From: Deltaproteobacteria bacterium
Lineage (GTDB): Bacteria; Desulfobacterota; Desulfarculia; Adiutricales; Adiutricaceae
Length of the DNA stretch: 51,722 nucleotides
Assembly: GCA_031264145.1 (NCBI GenBank)
Contig: JAISEK010000130.1
Span: 1-51,722, forward strand
Reading direction: 5' to 3'
Shown here: one piece after another, positions 1 through 8,391 of the stretch
Layout: each line of letters begins with the position of its first letter
Position numbering within the stretch: position 1 is the first letter of the stretch
Made by a program: the position numbers and the translations under genes
The notes under the pieces: model-generated
Seen by the model: only the letters and a program-made list of their open reading frames with translations
Database searches by the model: none
Told to the model about the DNA's origin: nothing

Positions 1-81
1 GAAAATGGCGGCAAGGGACAGAACGGCATACATTCCAAGACCGACAATAACCTGAATATTGACAGCCTGGGGCTGTGGTAG
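1..81 (+). CDS. C-terminal end of an upstream gene (partial)
   Basis: Frame 1 is open from the window edge and ends at TAG 79-81, giving 26 residues that are polar and rich in Asn, Gly and Lys and finish in SLGLW. It stops 10 bases before the VWA gene, so the two are probably co-transcribed. Too little is visible to name it. CobT-like VWA proteins are commonly encoded next to a MoxR/CobS-type AAA ATPase, so that is a guess from context only. Confidence 0.5.
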   Translation, partial: ENGGKGQNGIHSKTDNNLNIDSLGLW

Positions 82-91
82 GTCAAAGACC

Positions 92-1816
92 ATGATCAAT
101 CCACTGATTAAATCCCTTCCCTTGATCGCCTCGGCTCTTGGACAAAGATATGGGGTCAGGGTCTTCATTGGGGGAGACAAGGCCATGTCGGATGGCAACG
201 ATATCTATCTTCCATCCTTACCCATAAATTCCTCAACTGAATTGCTCAACCTGACGAGAGGCTATCTGGACCATGAGGCGGCCCATATCCGGGAGACCGA
301 TTTTCGGACGTTGAGATCGGCCAGACTTACGCCCGTTGAGTTTCATGTCTGCAATATCATCGAAGACCACAGGGTGGAACGTCTTCTTGGCGAGCGATAT
401 CCTGGTTGTCGTCAAAACTTCGAGTGGCTTGTCAGGAGGTTTTTCGATGAGGATCCCATACAGGACAAGTCTCTGGATCTCATGATCCTGGACTGGATTC
501 TCCTGACCGTGCGTGGCTGGTCCGTGCCCGAGATTGGGGCCAGGGCCGTAAGTCTGGCCAGGGTCATGGAGGAAAAGTGCCCTGGCCTTCCTGGAAGTCT
601 TCAGCCCGTGCTTGACGGCATCAAAGCCAGCTGTCCCGACACTGGGGCATCCATTGGACACGCCCGTGATTTGGTCAGGACGTTACAAGTCTTTAAGGAG
701 CAAAATGACAAGCGGGATGACCTTGAACGAAACGGCTTGGATCAAGACAGGAGCCAGGTCTCCCCTGAAAAGGGACATGGCTTTTCTGGAATCAAAAATC
801 TGGATCCAGTCCCTGACATCGGGCAAAAGAGTTCCTGTTCAAACGACGGCGAACGGGGCATGGATGATTGTCTGCCTGGATCCAAGACCAAAGACACAAA
901 AACCGCCGACAAATTGGAAATAGCCTCGTCGGCCATTGAAAAACTGCTTGGCAAAAGAACCGACGAACTGCCCAAGTCTTTCGATGGTCTTTTGGAATCC
1001 AGCCTGAGTGACACTGCCAACGGGCCAGGACATAAGGTCACGGTGGCCATTCCTAGTTGTCTGCCCTTGGGTGAGTTGGGCCAAGATGACATCGCCGCAG
1101 CCAAAAAGACGACCCTGCTTCTCAAGGGAAGACTCCAGAGCCTGTTGCAGGGGTTGACGATAAAACCCGCCAGCCCTGGCCTGCGTGGCCGTCTGGAACC
1201 CTGTCTTCTGCATAGGGTCTGCCTGGGTTCCTCGCCCAAGGTTTTCAGGAGAAAAGGGACACGGACGGGTCTGGACGTGGCCGTCCATCTGCTGTTGGAC
1301 GCTTCCGCCTCAATGAGTCGTCTGATCAATTTGGCTTGCCAGACGGTCTATTCGATATGCGAGGCACTGGCTAATGTCTCTGGAATCAATGTGGCGGCCA
1401 CGGCGTTTCCAGGGATTCCATGTCAAAAATCTTCCAGACAAGATGGCCATAAGTGGTTGACCGTGGCTCCAATGCTGGGTCACGGTCAACGGATTCACCG
1501 TAATTTTCAGGCCAGGGCTTCAGGCAATACTCCCTTGGCCGAGGCCCTATGGTGGGTCATGCAGGAAATGGTTCCGCTAAACGAACTAAGAAAAATGATT
1601 CTCCTGGTGACCGATGGGGAGCCTGATTCGCCATATGAGGCCAAGAAAGCGATCAAGTTCGCTCAGGATGCGGGAATCGAGCTGTACGGCCTGGGTTTGG
1701 GGAGCGACTCGGTCAAGGGACTGATGCCTGGGAGAAATATCGTCATCAATAATCTCATGGAAATGCCCCGGAAGTTGTTTGGGCTTCTGGGTCAGGCTTT
1801 GAACTACAAGCAGTAA
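92..1816 (+). CDS. CobT-like protein: N-terminal HExxH zincin-like domain plus C-terminal VWA domain
   Basis: A 574-residue protein. Residues 61-65 read HEAAH, and a conserved Glu/His patch (NIIEDHRVE) follows at 88-96; together they look like the HExxH plus distal Glu of a zinc metallopeptidase fold. A charged, low-complexity middle (about 200-290) leads to a C-terminal von Willebrand A domain whose MIDAS motif DASAS starts at D403, with a TDGEPDSP strand further on. This is the layout of cobaltochelatase CobT-type and MoxR-associated VWA proteins found on integrative elements. The ATG at 92 is preferred over a TTG at 59 because the family begins near MINPLIKSL and the upstream gene ends at 81. 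The next gene starts 15 bases downstream. No cobalamin genes lie nearby, so a chelatase role is unlikely. The actual function is unknown. Confidence 0.8.
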   Translation: MINPLIKSLPLIASALGQRYGVRVFIGGDKAMSDGNDIYLPSLPINSSTELLNLTRGYLDHEAAHIRETDFRTLRSARLTPVEFHVCNIIEDHRVERLLGERYPGCRQNFEWLVRRFFDEDPIQDKSLDLMILDWILLTVRGWSVPEIGARAVSLARVMEEKCPGLPGSLQPVLDGIKASCPDTGASIGHARDLVRTLQVFKEQNDKRDDLERNGLDQDRSQVSPEKGHGFSGIKNLDPVPDIGQKSSCSNDGERGMDDCLPGSKTKDTKTADKLEIASSAIEKLLGKRTDELPKSFDGLLESSLSDTANGPGHKVTVAIPSCLPLGELGQDDIAAAKKTTLLLKGRLQSLLQGLTIKPASPGLRGRLEPCLLHRVCLGSSPKVFRRKGTRTGLDVAVHLLLDASASMSRLINLACQTVYSICEALANVSGINVAATAFPGIPCQKSSRQDGHKWLTVAPMLGHGQRIHRNFQARASGNTPLAEALWWVMQEMVPLNELRKMILLVTDGEPDSPYEAKKAIKFAQDAGIELYGLGLGSDSVKGLMPGRNIVINNLMEMPRKLFGLLGQALNYKQ

Positions 1817-1831
1817 GGGAGGTAACCTGGA

Positions 1832-2137
1832 ATGAGGCCGATTTGTATGGTTTGCATGACAAGGGAGTATGTGGAGCTGACGTCATATGGGAGCGACATG
1901 GGGACCGTGATCGGGGGAGTGGCCGGATCTGGAATCCTGACGTCCAAGGGAGCCGCCGTTGGTGCGGCCATCGGGTCAGTCGTTCCAGTCGTCGGTACAG
2001 CCGCAGGTGGTATCCTGGGAGGCATAACAGGTGCCATCACGGGCATGGTGGCTGGGGCCAAGGTTGGAGAAACGGTCGATAAGCACGTTATAAGGCTCTA
2101 TCGATGTAGGAAGTGCGGGCGAGCGATCAAGGTTTGA
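1832..2137 (+). CDS. Small glycine-zipper membrane protein bracketed by two CxxC pairs
   Basis: A 101-residue protein with a good ribosome site (GGGAGG, about 9 bases before the ATG). The N-terminus has CMVC at residues 5-8 and the C-terminus has CRKC at about 92-95, so the four cysteines could form one zinc ribbon. Between them, residues 24-78 are nearly all Gly, Ala, Val and Ile with many GxxxG spacings, typical of a glycine-zipper hairpin that inserts into or packs within membranes. It lies 15 bases after the VWA gene on the same strand and is followed by a strong hairpin, so the two form one transcription unit. No specific family is recognised. A pore-forming or membrane-anchoring role is inference from composition alone. 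Confidence 0.7.
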   Translation: MRPICMVCMTREYVELTSYGSDMGTVIGGVAGSGILTSKGAAVGAAIGSVVPVVGTAAGGILGGITGAITGMVAGAKVGETVDKHVIRLYRCRKCGRAIKV

Positions 2138-2164
2138 TGTCTTGTGATTTTACTTATTAATAGT

Positions 2165-2194
2165 GTCCATTCTCCCTATAGCGGGAGAATGGAC
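2165..2194 (+). terminator. Rho-independent terminator after the glycine-zipper gene
   Basis: A perfect 12-bp stem (GTCCATTCTCCC and its complement) with a 6-base loop, followed by a T-rich tract at 2200-2216. It sits 28 bases after the stop codon. Confidence 0.75.
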
Positions 2195-2940: not shown

Positions 2941-3230
2941 CGCCAACCAGCTCGAACATGCTTCGCATTACTTTGTTCACATACAAATCAGAAATGATAA
3001 GCCTTATGAATATGCTGCAATTGAAAATAATTATAAAATCCACGTTACTGGTAGCTTTCAGACGATGAGAGTCAGTTTATTATTTTTGGGCTTATGCTTA
3101 GTAGGATAACAACTGGTTTTTTTACAAATTGTTTGTTATCTATGCCCGTGAAAAAAATATTGACAAAATCATTGAGATTATGATAAGATTTCAGATGGGC
3201 AAACTTATGGGTACAGTTGAGGTCGACTTT
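2941..3230. other. Intergenic region before the AlpA-like gene
   Basis: Moderately AT-rich sequence. The in-frame extension upstream of the AlpA-like gene (from 3129) has no ribosome site and is not counted as coding. No other feature was seen. Confidence 0.5.
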
Positions 3231-3437
3231 ATGACCGAAATAAACTCTGAGTCCCCGACTACCTGCAATACAAAAGAAGTTCTTTCTCTTGTTCGGTGCG
3301 GGGCCACCAAGCTTTATTGTTGGTTAAAAGAAGGCAAGTTCCCAAAGCCTATGCGCTTTGGGCGACAGAATCGTTGGTTTAAATCAGATATTATTAATTT
3401 CATTAATAATGGTTTTAAACTGACACCCGACCTTTAA
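3231..3437 (+). CDS. AlpA-family helix-turn-helix regulator / excisionase-like
   Basis: A 68-residue protein. The pattern CNTKEVLSLVRCGATKLYCWLKEGKFPKPMRFGRQ, described here as a motif path (KEVL, then KLYxWxKEGxFPxPxRxG, then WxKSDI), is that of AlpA/MerR-like winged-helix proteins that activate integrases or act as excisionases on islands and satellite phages. The ATG at 3231 is chosen because GAGGT lies about 10 bases upstream and the family starts close to this point; an open extension back to 3129 lacks these signs. It lies about 600 bases from the integrase and points toward it, so a role in element excision or integrase control is likely. Confidence 0.8.
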   Translation: MTEINSESPTTCNTKEVLSLVRCGATKLYCWLKEGKFPKPMRFGRQNRWFKSDIINFINNGFKLTPDL

Positions 3438-4016: not shown

Positions 4017-5192
4017 TTATCGCAATGTATCCAAGTAATCAGCCCATTCCTGCATCATTATCCTGCGATTTGACAGATAATCAGCATAGTTATAAGATGC
4101 TCTGACGCCATGATCGCTATGGGCCAACTGCCTCTCGATCCAGTCCCGATTGTACTCCTTCTCATTTAGTATGGTCGAGGCTATGGATCTGAAGCCGTGG
4201 ACGGTCATTTCCTCTTTGGAAAACCCCAGTCTTCTTAAGCCAGCAAGGAGGGTCATATCTGAAATAGGCCTATCATTGGTCCTCATGCTTGGAAAGAGAT
4301 ACCGACCTGTGCCGGAATAACAGCGCAACTCGTTCATGATATTGATTACTTGAGTGGCCAGAGGGACTATGTGGATCTGCTTCATCTTCATTTTGTCGGC
4401 AGGTATACGCCATTCCGCCTTGTCAAAATCAAATTCAGCCCACTCGGCATGTCGTAGCTCTCCTGGCCTTACGAAGACATAGGGAGCTATCTGTAGAGCC
4501 AACTTTACTATAGGGTTACCGCTATACCCATCGATAGCTCTTAAAAGACCGCCTATGGCATTAGGGTCAGTGAGGCTGGCCATGTGGTCATGCGTAGCAG
4601 GTTTTAGGGCACCTTTCAGATCTGTTGAGATGTCGTGGGTCATCCGCCCTGTGGCTATGGCGTAACGGAAAACCTGGCCGCAATATTGTAGACACCTATG
4701 AGCGGTGACAATTGATCCTCTTGATTCAATTTTACGTAAAACTTCCAATAATTCCAGAGCTGTTATTTCTGAAATTTGCCTAATAGAAAGAAATGGCAGT
4801 AAGTCTTTCTCAATTCTGCCCCATATCCTTTTGGAGTACTCTGGAACTAGAGTAGTTTTTTTGTTCTCAAACCATTCCCTCGCAATGACTTCAAATGAAT
4901 TATCGTTTTGAGATCTTTCAGCGTTTTTCTCAGCCTTTTTTTGGACACAGGGATTAACCCCGGCTTCAAGGTTTTTTTTCGCCTCAGCCAGCTTTTCCCT
5001 GGCTTCCTTCAGTGAGGCCAGAGGGTATTTTCCCAAGGTCAGGGTATAAAAATGCCCTTCAAACTTATAGTTGAACCTCCAGGACTTTAGGCCAGTTGGC
5101 GTGGCGAAAAGGTACATGCCCCCGCCATCAGGGTATTTCGTGCTCTTGGCCGGAGGTTTGAGATTTCGCAGAAAAAGGTCGGTCAGCGCCAT
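4017..5192 (-). CDS. int: Tyrosine recombinase integrase, P4 type, with DUF4102 N-terminus
   Basis: A 391-residue phage-type integrase. The N-terminus (LTDLFLRNLKPPAKSTKYPD, then GGGMYL) is the DUF4102 arm-binding domain; a SAM-like core-binding domain follows, then the catalytic domain. Catalytic residues are visible: Arg in RPGELRHAEW, His-x-x-Arg in HGFRSIAS, a further His in LAHSDHG, and Tyr in SYNYADY. Start 5192 is preferred to an in-frame ATG at 5258 because the family begins at MALTD and GGAGGAG lies just upstream. The gene is about 170 bases from the 3' end of a tRNA-Glu gene, the usual target of this class, so the window's left 5.3 kb is one end of an integrated element. It looks intact. 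Confidence 0.95.
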   Translation of the reverse strand: MALTDLFLRNLKPPAKSTKYPDGGGMYLFATPTGLKSWRFNYKFEGHFYTLTLGKYPLASLKEAREKLAEAKKNLEAGVNPCVQKKAEKNAERSQNDNSFEVIAREWFENKKTTLVPEYSKRIWGRIEKDLLPFLSIRQISEITALELLEVLRKIESRGSIVTAHRCLQYCGQVFRYAIATGRMTHDISTDLKGALKPATHDHMASLTDPNAIGGLLRAIDGYSGNPIVKLALQIAPYVFVRPGELRHAEWAEFDFDKAEWRIPADKMKMKQIHIVPLATQVINIMNELRCYSGTGRYLFPSMRTNDRPISDMTLLAGLRRLGFSKEEMTVHGFRSIASTILNEKEYNRDWIERQLAHSDHGVRASYNYADYLSNRRIMMQEWADYLDTLR

Positions 5193-5241
5193 GAGGGTAT
5201 CGACTCCTCCAGAAGGTAAGATACCCTCAAATATACCCTCA
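5192..5241. repeat. Three TACCCTCA copies at the integrase start, candidate arm-type binding sites
   Basis: TACCCTCA occurs at 5222-5229 and 5234-5241 as direct repeats, and inverted at 5192-5199, overlapping the integrase start codon. Short repeats between an integrase gene and its attachment site often bind the integrase N-terminal domain or the excisionase. That reading is inference. Confidence 0.45.
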
Positions 5242-5294
5242 ATAATCTTGGGTGTCAACGGAAAAAGGCGGTATTAGACGGTCAACCATTGGAC

Positions 5295-5363: not shown

Positions 5364-5439
5364 TGGTAGTCCCAAGGGGAATCGAACCCCTGTTTTCGCC
5401 GTGAGAGGGCGGTGTCCTAGACCGCTAGACGATGGGACC
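5364..5439 (-). tRNA. tRNA-Glu (anticodon CTC), attachment target of the island
   Basis: A 76-base cloverleaf on the minus strand. The acceptor stem GGTCCCA pairs with TGGGACT, the anticodon loop is CTCTCAC (anticodon CTC), the T arm is AGGGG-TTCGAAT-CCCCT, and an encoded CCA ends it. The anticodon stem has one C-A mismatch at its outer pair. The integrase gene lies just beyond the 3' end, so this tRNA is the probable attB. The matching repeat at the far end of the element is not in the window. Confidence 0.95.
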
Positions 5440-5694: not shown

Positions 5695-5934
5695 ATGCCC
5701 ATTTATGAGTTCAAGTGCCTTGACTGCGGCCATGACTTCGAGGAGCTCGTCCTGAGCCGCTCTGAGACCGTTACCTGCCCAGGCTGCGGCGAGGCCAACT
5801 GCGAGAAACACCTCTCAAGCTTCCGTTGCGGCCCATCTGGGGGCTCCATGGACCTGGCCTCCGGTTCCCCATCTTCCTCGTCGTCCTGCGGTTCCTGCTC
5901 CTCGTCGTCATGTGCCGGCTGTGGCGTCCACTGA
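5695..5934 (+). CDS. FmdB-family zinc-ribbon protein
   Basis: A 79-residue protein. It opens with [17 protein letters not shown] and a second CPGC pair, the CxxC...CxxC zinc ribbon of the FmdB putative regulatory family. It continues with a low-complexity Ser/Gly/Cys tail that ends [10 protein letters not shown], also typical of the family. GAGG lies about 12 bases before the ATG. Its end overlaps the start of hemC by 23 bases, so it probably leads the tetrapyrrole operon. The family's role is poorly defined: a regulator or metal-binding adaptor has been proposed for relatives. Confidence 0.9.
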
Positions 5935-6844
5935 GGGCCGCCCGCCGTTGAGGGTCGGGGCCCGGGGGAGTTCCCTGTCGAGGGTCCAGACCATGGCCGT
6001 GGTGAAGAGGCTCAATGAGCTCAATCCAGGGGAGGTATTTGAGTTCCTTGCCATCAGGACCAGCGGCGACGACCCCTCCTCTCGGCCCTATGGCCCCCAG
6101 GGCGTCAAGGGTCTGTTCGTCAAGGAAATCGAGTCAGCCCTCCTGGGCGGCCAGATCGACCTGGCCGTCCACAGCGCGAAGGATCTGGCCTCGGAGCTGC
6201 CAGATGGCCTCGTCCTGGGCCCGGCCATGGAGCGGGCCGAGCCCTGGGACGCGCTCGTCTGCGCCCAGGGCCTGGGCCTGGCCACCCTCCCCATGGGGGC
6301 CAGGGTGGGGACGTCCAGCCTGAGGCGTGGGTCCTTCCTCAAGGCCTTCCGCGAGGATCTGGAGATCATGCCGCTTAGGGGCAACGTGGAGACTAGACTC
6401 GCGAAGGTCGGCCGGGACTTTGAGGCCATACTGCTGGCCAAGGCCGGCCTGGTACGCCTGGCCCCTGGGCACGGCCATGCGGTCGAGGATCTGCCACCCG
6501 AAGTCATGCCACCCTCTCCCGGCCAGGGCCAGCTGGCCCTGGAGTTCCGCGAGGGCGACCATCGGGTGTCGGCCCTGCTCCAGGGACTGGACCACGAGGC
6601 CTCTGGCCTGGCCTTGGCCGCCGAGAGAGCCTTCATGCGGCGGCTGGGCCTGGGCTGCACGGCCCCCGTGGGTGCCCTGTGCCAAGACGGCCCGGGGGGC
6701 CGGCTGGTCATGCGGGCGGCCCTGGCCGCGGAGGGTAGGGGGATCATTCTCGCTGGGGGCGAAAGCGCCTACCGCGACCTGGCCGCAGCCGCCGCCCTGG
6801 GCCGCCTGGTGGCGGAAAAGATCCTGGAGGGGACCCCGAGATGA
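5912..6844 (+). CDS. hemC: Hydroxymethylbilane synthase (porphobilinogen deaminase)
   Basis: A 310-residue enzyme that polymerises four porphobilinogens into hydroxymethylbilane in the cytoplasm. Visible family motifs are GARGSSLS near the start, RTSGDD at 49-54, [12 protein letters not shown] (residues 86-97), GTSSLRR and LRGNVETRL. Cys249 in LGLGCTAP is the expected attachment point of the dipyrromethane cofactor. A GTG at 5912 is taken as the start; a second GTG at 5921 is possible. It overlaps the FmdB-like gene upstream and shares an ATGA overlap with the methyltransferase/synthase gene downstream, so translation is probably coupled. Confidence 0.95.
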
Positions 6845-8391
6845 GCGACGCGACCGCCAAGAGGCCCGGCCAGGTCTACCTGGTCGGGGCCGGCCCAGGC
6901 GACCCCGGGCTTCTGACCCTAAGGGGGGCCCAGGTCCTGGCCAGGGCCCATGTGGTCGTCCACGACCATCTGGCCGCCCCCGAACTGCTGGGCCTGGCGC
7001 CAAGCGAGTCGAGGAAGATATACGCCGGCAAGGTCGGCTCGCGCCACGCCTTGAGGCAGCACGAGATAAACGCGCTCCTGGTCTCGGAGGCCCTGTCCGG
7101 CCGCACGGTGGTGAGGCTCAAGGGCGGGGACCCGTACATATTTGGCCGGGGCGGCGAGGAGGCCCTGGAGCTGGAAAAGGCAGGCATCCCCTTCGAGGTC
7201 GTGCCCGGGGTGACCTCGGCCATAGCCGCGGCCTCTGCGGCCGGCATCCCCCTGACCCACAGGGACCTGGCCTCCCAGGTGGGCATCATAACGGGCCACG
7301 AGAGACCGGGCAAGGAGGCCTCTGCCCATGACTTCGGGGCCCTGGCCCGGCTGGGGACCCTGGCAGCGGTCATGGGTGTGGAAAACCTTTCCGGCCTCTG
7401 CCGCTCGCTGGTGGAGGCAGGAAAGGACCCAGGGACACCGGCCGCCCTCATCCAGTGGGGCGCCACCGGCCGCCAGAGGGTGGCCGCCGCGACCCTTGGC
7501 TCCCTCCCGGGGGAGGCGGCCAGGGCCGGCCTGGGTGCCCCGGCCCTCCTGGTGGTCGGGAAGGTCGTTGGGCTCAGGGACAGGCTGTGCTGGTTCGAGA
7601 AGAGGCCACTTTTCGGGAAGACTGTACTGGTCACCAGGACCAGGGAGCAGTCGGGCCGGCTGGCCGCCTCCCTTAGGGAACTGGGGGCCAATGTCCTGGA
7701 GAGGCCGGCCATCGAGATCAAGCCCATCTCGCCTAACCCGGCCCTGGACGCAGCCCTTGGGGCCCTGTCCGGCTATCGGTACCTCATTCTCTCCTCACCC
7801 AACGGGGCCTCCATCTTCATGAAGGCCCTGTTTGGCCGCGGACTGGACGCCAGGGCCCTACACGGCCTCCTGATAGCCGTCATCGGCCCTGGCACCGCCG
7901 GGGCCCTGGCTGACTTCGGCCTGGCGGCCGACATCATGCCCAGTCGTTTCGTGGCCGAGGGCCTGGTGGAGGCATTCTCGGGGCTGCCGGCCGGCCGGGC
8001 TCTCCTGGCCAGGGCCAGCGAGGCCAGGGACATCCTGGTGGAGGGCCTCCGCGGGCTCGGTTTCGCCCTGGACGTGGTCCCCCTGTACGAGACGGCCACG
8101 GCCGACTGGGCAGGGCTCGACCCCAGCGGTGGGGAGGGGGGGGGCCTGGGCGACGGCGACTTTCTGGGAGGGGTTGACCTGGCCACCTTGACCAGTGCCA
8201 GCACGGCCAGGGGCCTGGCCGAGCACGTCCCTGCGGACAGGCGGGCCTCTCTCCCGGTGGTCTCCATCGGCCCCGTCACCTCCATGGCGGCCATCGCTCT
8301 GGGCTTCAAGGTGGCCCGTGAGGCCAGGATCTCGACCATAGAGGGCCTGATAGAGGCGGCCAGGGATTTCCTCGCGCCGGTCCACCCCTGA
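6841..8391 (+). CDS. cobA/hemD: Fused uroporphyrinogen-III C-methyltransferase / uroporphyrinogen-III synthase
   Basis: A 516-residue bifunctional protein. Residues 10-245 form an SAM-dependent uroporphyrinogen-III methyltransferase with GAGPGDPG (16-23), KGGDPYIFGRGGEE (94-107) and the PGVTSA motif. From about 262 a second domain (GKTVLVTR, then SSPNGA and IGPGTAGAL) is uroporphyrinogen-III synthase. HemC product would thus be closed to uroporphyrinogen III and methylated to precorrin-2 by one polypeptide. This fusion is common in anaerobes that make siroheme and cobalamin, and in sulfate reducers that make haem by the siroheme route. Its start overlaps hemC by 4 bases. A glycine-rich linker at about 428-437 may be an insertion. 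Confidence 0.95.
   Translation: MSDATAKRPGQVYLVGAGPGDPGLLTLRGAQVLARAHVVVHDHLAAPELLGLAPSESRKIYAGKVGSRHALRQHEINALLVSEALSGRTVVRLKGGDPYIFGRGGEEALELEKAGIPFEVVPGVTSAIAAASAAGIPLTHRDLASQVGIITGHERPGKEASAHDFGALARLGTLAAVMGVENLSGLCRSLVEAGKDPGTPAALIQWGATGRQRVAAATLGSLPGEAARAGLGAPALLVVGKVVGLRDRLCWFEKRPLFGKTVLVTRTREQSGRLAASLRELGANVLERPAIEIKPISPNPALDAALGALSGYRYLILSSPNGASIFMKALFGRGLDARALHGLLIAVIGPGTAGALADFGLAADIMPSRFVAEGLVEAFSGLPAGRALLARASEARDILVEGLRGLGFALDVVPLYETATADWAGLDPSGGEGGGLGDGDFLGGVDLATLTSASTARGLAEHVPADRRASLPVVSIGPVTSMAAIALGFKVAREARISTIEGLIEAARDFLAPVHP

What the first reader, a model, noticed from the sequence alone, without database searches (positions are those of the whole stretch)
1..2194. VWA-zincin gene and glycine-zipper gene as a two- or three-gene island module
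Sequence shows a HExxH plus VWA protein and, 15 bases later, a 101-residue glycine-zipper protein bracketed by CxxC pairs, closed by a strong terminator, with an unknown gene ending 10 bases upstream. VWA proteins of this type usually work with an AAA ATPase. A membrane-active small protein paired with a metallopeptidase-like VWA partner has the look of a defence or killing module, but that is inference. There are no cobalamin genes to support a chelatase role.
Basis: partly seen in the sequence, partly recalled or inferred. Interest (0 to 1): 0.65.

Follow-up and report, generated by a model that had tools for sequence, protein, structure and literature searches.

The report
Mobile-element recombination operon's AAA-partner tail end
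The two genes are real and form the tail end of a conserved operon, in which a probable ATP-driven protein-remodelling machine travels with DNA-repair (recombination) genes on bacterial mobile elements; they do not look like a stand-alone toxin or defence pair.

Summary
Observation confirmed: window 92-1816 encodes a 574-aa CobT-like VWA protein with HExxH; a 101-aa CxxC/glycine-zipper/CxxC protein starts 15 bases later, then a hairpin terminator. The gene ending at 81 is the C-terminal stub of DUF3150: its DSLGLW-stop tip is identical in relatives. The contig starts at base 1, but relatives show the whole operon: ERF annealase, PD-(D/E)XK nuclease, CobS/MoxR-type AAA ATPase, DUF3150, VWA, glycine-zipper. 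Given enough upstream DNA, DUF3150 precedes VWA in 71/71 loci, the AAA gene in 68/68, an annealase (ERF, Bet or RecT) in 52/59, including IncC plasmids and SXT-like elements. HExxH and the MIDAS are near-invariant. So the predicted AAA partner is right, but a defence or killing module is not supported: no PADLOC match for the VWA protein, and the glycine-zipper gene is a lineage-specific accessory (13 of 73 scored VWA loci). Best reading: an AAA+/VWA remodelling, perhaps proteolytic, complex serving the recombination module of an integrative element at tRNA-Glu; its biochemical role is inferred. A MoxR/vWA-metallopeptidase pair is published for jumbo phages; no published account of the DUF3150 triad was found. 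New variant of a known kind.

The parts
1..81 (+). C-terminal 26 codons and stop of a DUF3150 gene (...NNLNIDSLGLW*), cut by the contig end
   Evidence: Tip DSLGLW* is identical in the DUF3150 proteins (PF11348, E 8.7e-96 for L028) directly upstream of the VWA gene in L028, L031, L032 and L033; tblastx of 43-87 falls on the L028 DUF3150 end; 35 of 69 distinct DUF3150 tails end in GLW
92..1816 (+). CobT-like VWA protein with N-terminal zincin-like HExxH domain (574 aa)
   Evidence: Pfam CobT and VWA above cut-offs; closest solved chains CobT of CobNST (9uka, E 3.3e-21) and NorD (9qhd); 12-sequence alignment A1
272..286 (+). HExxH (H61 E62 H65)
   Evidence: H61 in 80, E62 in 81 and H65 in 81 of 83 rows from genomes and plasmids; 28-29 of 30 viral rows
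362..379 (+). E91-D-x-R-x-E96, candidate third metal ligand
   Evidence: E91, D92, R94 and E96 each in 80-81 of 83 genome and plasmid rows; the aligned stretch of CobT reads EQARVE
1298..1312 (+). MIDAS DxSxS (D403 S405 S407); T480 at 1529-1531 and D508 at 1613-1615
   Evidence: D, S, S and T in 83/83 and D508 in 82/83 genome and plasmid rows
1832..2137 (+). 101-aa glycine-zipper protein bracketed by CxxC pairs (split zinc-ribbon candidate)
   Evidence: C5, C8, C92, C95 and D83 plus several zipper glycines invariant in 14 homologues; AlphaFold2 model poor (mean pLDDT 54.5), only the two ends at about 70-83
2165..2194 (+). terminator-like hairpin, 12 pairs
3129..3437 (+). HTH_17/AlpA-like small regulator of the island
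   Evidence: PF12728 E 6e-6 at the cut-off (26.9 against 27 bits), PF05930 E 0.003 below the cut-off
4017..5258 (-). tyrosine integrase
   Evidence: PF22022 E 7e-31, PF13356, PF00589; 67% DNA identity to the integrase next to the same tRNA in G019
5364..5439 (-). tRNA-Glu(ctc), presumed attachment site and right border of the island
   Evidence: same tRNA-integrase order in G019 and in G002 with other cargo; no att repeat could be shown because the left end is missing

Best explanation
The two genes are the 3' end of a mobile-element operon of the order ERF annealase, PD-(D/E)XK nuclease, CobS/MoxR-type AAA+ ATPase, DUF3150, VWA-zincin, glycine-zipper protein. Shown: gene order (in relatives), motif conservation and linkage. 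Inferred: the nuclease and annealase resect and anneal DNA ends for RecA-independent recombination. The AAA+ ring is coupled to its substrate by the VWA co-chaperone, whose MIDAS binds an acidic ligand. DUF3150, with a folded core and a disordered tail ending in a conserved aromatic tip, is the bridge or substrate adaptor. Together they unfold or strip (and, if the HExxH is active, cut) proteins on the recombining DNA so that the element can repair or replicate itself. The glycine-zipper protein is a lineage-specific accessory, most likely a small membrane-inserted anchor whose two CxxC pairs form one zinc site.
For: AAA-DUF3150-VWA linkage in every locus with enough upstream DNA (71/71 and 68/68). 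Annealase upstream in 52/59 and nuclease in 54/59, with different annealase families swapped (ERF in 21, Bet or RecT in 31) while the triad stays. Same triad beside bet/recT and exonuclease genes on IncC and Pseudomonas plasmids, and RadC-like genes (read by eye) next in SXT-like loci. HExxH, ED.R.E and MIDAS near-invariant; Walker A in 73/73 AAA proteins. Closest solved chains of the VWA protein are AAA co-subunits, CobT and NorD. DUF3150 predicted well folded (pLDDT 83.5, tail disordered), 64 of 69 distinct tails ending in F, W or Y. SXT Bet and Exo are shown to recombine DNA (PMC3118119). The pair sits beside integrase and tRNA-Glu.
Against: No biochemical or genetic test of the triad was found. 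Two relatives (L043, L045) carry the triad without annealase or nuclease genes, so the link is not absolute. In this genome only the stub, VWA and glycine-zipper genes are visible; the rest is inferred from relatives. Phage homologues have AAA+VWA without a DUF3150 hit and without annealase hits nearby, so the pair can serve another purpose, such as virion assembly. HExxH activity is untested. The glycine-zipper model is too poor to show a zinc ribbon.
Confidence: 0.55

Rival explanations
1. A defence cassette: the AAA-DUF3150-VWA(-glycine-zipper) set senses invading DNA or phage and the zincin or the glycine-zipper protein kills or blocks; annealase and nuclease are part of it.
For: Small integrase-linked elements (about 9 kb in L046, host genes on both sides) resemble elements that carry defence cargo; MoxR-vWA ternary conflict systems exist (PMC7159879).
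Against: No PADLOC match for the VWA protein; the third component is DUF3150, not VMAP, iSTAND, FtsH or a beta-propeller protein; no swapping effector domains seen; same triad on conjugative plasmids and SXT-like elements beside bet-exo.
Confidence: 0.15
2. A protease machine: the AAA+ ring feeds DUF3150 or bound proteins to the HExxH domain, as FtsH does within one chain. This can hold together with the best explanation.
For: HExxH plus a downstream Glu near-invariant over 113 proteins including phage ones; the authors of PMC7824862 call the jumbo-phage equivalent a metallopeptidase domain fused to vWA.
Against: CobT has a related N-terminal region and works in metal chelation; the profile alignment to 9uka starts after the HExxH. 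No fold or activity test here.
Confidence: 0.25
3. A metal chelatase: VWA = CobT, AAA = CobS, inserting a metal into a tetrapyrrole or protein.
For: Pfam CobT match above cut-off; CobN homologue in the genome; hemC and cobA-hemD nearby.
Against: NCBIfam CobT equivalog 28.9 bits against a cut-off of 759; the tetrapyrrole genes lie beyond the tRNA-Glu border, and fmdB-hemC stay there in G019 and in same-genus genomes without the module; the module in relatives sits at other tRNAs; CobN is on another contig.
Confidence: 0.05
4. VWA plus glycine-zipper protein as a toxin pair, the small protein being a pore former held in check by the VWA protein.
For: Glycine zippers occur in bacteriocin-like proteins; the two genes are adjacent and co-inherited in a lineage.
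Against: Most loci have the VWA gene without the glycine-zipper gene (60 of 73 tree rows); Marinobacterium loci carry a relative before Bet instead; invariant Cys pairs and a C-terminal CxxCG suggest a metal-binding structural protein.
Confidence: 0.06

Closest known systems
MoxR AAA+ / vWA-metallopeptidase pair of group 2.2 jumbo phages (PMC7824862)
   Same: vWA protein with an N-terminal metallopeptidase-like domain next to a MoxR AAA+ gene
   Different: Here a third conserved gene, DUF3150, lies between them and annealase and nuclease genes precede; the phage pair is proposed to act in virion assembly
Lambda-Red-like ssb-bet-exo module of SXT/R391 elements and IncC plasmids (PMC3118119, PMC4542580)
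   Same: AAA, DUF3150 and VWA genes of the same families lie beside ssb-bet-exo there; plasmid pAQU1 lists a CobS-like CDS 096 and a VWA CDS 102 (PMC4036041)
   Different: Here the annealase (in relatives) is ERF and the nuclease another PD-(D/E)XK group; a glycine-zipper gene is added; VWA identity is only 26-28%
CobNST cobaltochelatase (CobT, PDB 9uka)
   Same: CobT-like N-terminal and VWA regions, CobS-like AAA partner in relatives
   Different: Far below the CobT equivalog score; no CobN in the locus; DUF3150 present
NorQ/NorD
   Same: AAA+ plus VWA partner; NorD (9qhd) is the second closest solved relative
   Different: No nitric-oxide reductase genes seen; N-terminal region not aligned
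MoxR-vWA ternary conflict systems (PMC7159879)
   Same: MoxR AAA + vWA + a third conserved protein
   Different: Third protein is DUF3150; no variable effector domains seen; bpMoxR match of the L028 AAA below cut-off (16.5 against 27)

Membership tests
Cobaltochelatase CobT (CobNST) | NCBIfam CobT equivalog score of at least 759 bits | tested here: not met
   28.9 bits
Cobaltochelatase CobT (CobNST) | Pfam CobT N-terminal domain and VWA domain | tested here: met
   43.7 and 26.0 bits, both above cut-off
Cobaltochelatase CobT (CobNST) | CobN in the same locus | tested here: not met
   CobN homologue is on another contig, C47; none of the Pfam-scanned neighbours of the VWA gene is CobN
MoxR / vWA-metallopeptidase pair | HExxH-bearing domain N-terminal to a VWA with intact MIDAS | tested here: met
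MoxR / vWA-metallopeptidase pair | MoxR-type AAA gene in the same operon | tested here: inconclusive
   68 of 68 related loci; the window's contig ends before it would be reached
MoxR / vWA-metallopeptidase pair | zincin fold and peptidase activity | not tested
AAA-DUF3150-VWA set of mobile elements (as in IncC and SXT) | DUF3150 gene directly upstream of the VWA gene | tested here: met
   stub 1-81 ends in DSLGLW* as relatives do
AAA-DUF3150-VWA set of mobile elements (as in IncC and SXT) | annealase and nuclease genes upstream | tested here: inconclusive
   present in 52 and 54 of 59 related loci; no ERF relative in this assembly
Known anti-phage defence systems (PADLOC 2.0) | match to a system protein | tested here: not met
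   none for VWA; LeoB E 0.006 over 33 zipper residues of the small protein only
Gly-zipper_Omp (PF13488) | score of at least 25 bits | tested here: not met
   24.8 bits, a borderline miss that reflects the zipper repeat only
MoxR-vWA ternary conflict systems | VMAP, iSTAND, FtsH or beta-propeller third component | tested here: not met
   third component is DUF3150

The most novel reading that the evidence does not exclude
Many conjugative and integrative elements carry a dedicated ATP-driven remodelling-and-protease machine (CobS/MoxR-type AAA, DUF3150 with a C-terminal aromatic docking or degron tip, VWA-zincin) for their own Red-like recombination. It is independent of which annealase is used, and in some lineages it is tied to the membrane by a split zinc-ribbon glycine-zipper protein.
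Probability: 0.25. Interest if true: 0.72.

Novelty: new variant of a known kind. Interest (0 to 1): 0.5.

Why it matters
Annealase/exonuclease pairs of mobile elements are studied and used as two- or three-protein tools, yet the same elements, including IncC resistance plasmids and SXT-type elements, carry a conserved AAA-DUF3150-VWA set beside them, and no paper in the searched library mentions DUF3150. If it acts in recombination or break repair, it is an overlooked part of how such elements survive entry into new hosts. DUF3150 has no fold match among solved structures, so it is also a protein-structure target.

Tried and rejected
Finding the upstream genes elsewhere in the same assembly: none. 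Single-sequence viral scan: three pattern hits, none a relative; the alignment scan worked. Glycine-zipper protein in plasmid and phage records by tblastn: no match. Structure of the glycine-zipper protein: too poor to search with. Zincin test by sequence search of the N-terminal 230 residues against PDB: nothing. SSB-like tail idea for DUF3150: some gamma tails are acidic and end in F, but the GLW tails of this lineage do not resemble the DDDIPF stretch of plasmid SSBs, so kept only as a thought. Chelatase reading because of nearby hemC and cobA-hemD: rejected, those genes lie on the host side of the tRNA. Att repeat: not found, as the left end is missing. Fold match of DUF3150 in PDB: none (best E 0.5, prob 0.02); in predicted viral proteins, eight phage proteins at E <= 0.001, one already named DUF3150.

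Full report
What is there. Window 1-2194 reads as the first-stage reader described. A frame stops at 79-81, ATG 92 opens a 574-aa protein ending at 1816, ATG 1832 opens a 101-aa protein ending at 2137, and a 12-pair hairpin lies at 2165-2194. The large protein matches Pfam CobT (43.7 bits) and VWA (26.0 bits), both above cut-off, but scores only 28.9 bits against the CobT equivalog cut-off of 759. Its closest solved relatives are CobT of cobaltochelatase and NorD, both partners of AAA+ rings. The small protein is a glycine zipper between two CxxC pairs.

Relatives answer the question. Full-length homologues occur in G014, G016, G017, G019 and twice in G029 of the same family. In G019 and G029 the operon is complete: ERF (PF04404, E 1e-27 in L028), a PD-(D/E)XK-like nuclease (PF13366 and PF12705 below cut-off), a CobS/MoxR-like AAA (PF07728 and CbbQ_C above cut-off), DUF3150 (PF11348, E 9e-96), VWA, glycine-zipper. 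These DUF3150 proteins end in DSLGLW, and the window's stub 1-81 ends ...NIDSLGLW*. The gene on the left is therefore DUF3150.

How general it is. A scan of 84,980 species genomes with the VWA alignment kept the best 79 loci. Where the DNA reaches far enough, DUF3150 lies upstream in 71/71, the AAA gene in 68/68, an annealase in 52/59 and a nuclease in 54/59. The annealase differs: ERF in 21 (mostly Desulfovibrionaceae, relatives of this organism and Alphaproteobacteria), Bet or RecT in 31 (mostly Gammaproteobacteria, including SXT-like elements and IncC plasmids). Loci L086 and L095 have an SSB and a nuclease around an unassigned 318-aa protein. These counts are not independent events: 14 of the SXT-like loci are near copies, and the loci are the best matches to this VWA protein, not a random draw. 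In a sample of 395 genomes of the phylum, 30 carry DUF3150; none of 14 control genomes does. Plasmid records show DUF3150-VWA with the AAA gene on IncC, Pseudomonas and Rhodanobacter plasmids.

Motifs. Over 83 rows from genomes and plasmids and 30 viral rows, HExxH is kept in all but a few, E91 and D92 likewise, and the MIDAS residues D403, S405, S407, T480 and D508 in 82-83 of the 83 (T480 is N in 20 viral rows). Walker A is intact in 73 of 73 distinct AAA proteins. DUF3150 has a folded core (AlphaFold2 mean pLDDT 83.5) and a disordered tail; 64 of 69 distinct tails end in F, W or Y, 35 of them in GLW. Its model matches no solved structure (best E 0.5) but matches eight predicted phage proteins. 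So phages also have DUF3150, although the 39 viral loci fetched here show AAA and VWA without it.

The glycine-zipper gene. Directly behind the VWA gene it is found in the window, G017, G019 and both G029 loci, in Desulfovibrionaceae and Desulfobacterium-type loci (L050, L051, L053-L056, L094) and in Rhodospirillaceae (L079, L080). Among 148 near genomes, six of the seven strong matches (E below 1e-30) are next to a VWA gene or its remnant, and the seventh, in G001, is itself a remnant without the first CxxC pair. On a tree of 76 VWA proteins presence is clustered: 5 changes against a shuffled mean of 12.2, none of 500 shuffles as low. But 60 of 73 scored rows lack it, and two Marinobacterium loci carry a relative in front of Bet instead. 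It is an inherited accessory of one lineage, not the partner that defines the module. C5, C8, C92, C95 and D83 are invariant in 14 homologues. The model is too poor to say more; a single zinc site formed by the two ends of a membrane hairpin is inference.

The island. Downstream lie an AlpA-like regulator, a tyrosine integrase (4017-5258) and tRNA-Glu(ctc) (5364-5439). G019 has the same order with a decayed VWA-glycine-zipper pair in front of a related, shorter integrase, while its complete operon lies further in, on the opposite strand. fmdB and hemC lie beside the tRNA-Glu or within a few kb of it in same-genus genomes, and other integrase cargo lies on the island side in G002. The hemC and cobA-hemD genes at 5912-8391 are therefore host genes. 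In the complete chromosome CP026657 the element in L046 is about 9 kb: ERF to glycine-zipper, a 543-aa unknown and an integrase, between apparent host genes.

How it most likely works. Shown by others: SXT Exo and Bet resect, anneal and recombine DNA (PMC3118119), and bet/exo expression is under the transfer activators of SXT and IncC elements (PMC4542580). [quoted passage not shown] Shown here: the AAA-DUF3150-VWA set is linked to such modules whatever the annealase. Inferred: the AAA+ ring with its VWA co-chaperone remodels proteins on the recombining DNA, DUF3150 being adaptor or substrate through its aromatic tip, and the HExxH domain may cut. In jumbo phages a MoxR/vWA-metallopeptidase pair has been described and assigned to virion assembly (PMC7824862), a reminder that the pair itself does not fix the process served.

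Verdict. Observation confirmed. Interpretation half right: AAA partner yes, defence or killing not supported. A new variant of a known kind, with a testable and possibly overlooked role in mobile-element recombination.

Noticed in passing
L028:1130-5646: Next to the intact operon of G019 lies a second cassette: another small CxxC glycine-zipper-like protein, a 322-aa unknown, an AAA protein (PF00004, E 1e-28) and a 502-aa protein with a weak C19orf12-like stretch; it recalls the AAA plus glycine-zipper pairs noted in PMC11090510.
   Followed up: partly
L028:14890-15931: Decayed VWA C-terminus and glycine-zipper gene beside a shortened integrase at tRNA-Glu, matching the window's pair in position: evidence for repeated use of this site.
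   Followed up: yes
G000:C47:2559-6524 (L220): A 1322-aa CobN/Mg-chelatase large-subunit homologue beside what looks like a TonB-dependent receptor gene, with no recognisable AAA or VWA chelatase subunit in the 14 kb read (judged by eye, not by Pfam).
   Followed up: partly
L029:622-2637: In G016 a NERD-helicase fusion follows the VWA gene where the glycine-zipper gene is expected, with only a frame-broken remnant of the latter.
   Followed up: partly
L086:3266-4219 and L095:3321-4274: 318-aa protein without any Pfam match between SSB and a PD-(D/E)XK nuclease in Geobacter-type loci; by position a candidate for a further annealase family.
   Followed up: no
L071:10575-10886: A different small protein with several CxxC pairs and a possible membrane stretch follows the VWA gene; L034, L052 and L058 have tiny single-helix membrane proteins there, so this position may favour small membrane proteins.
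   Followed up: partly
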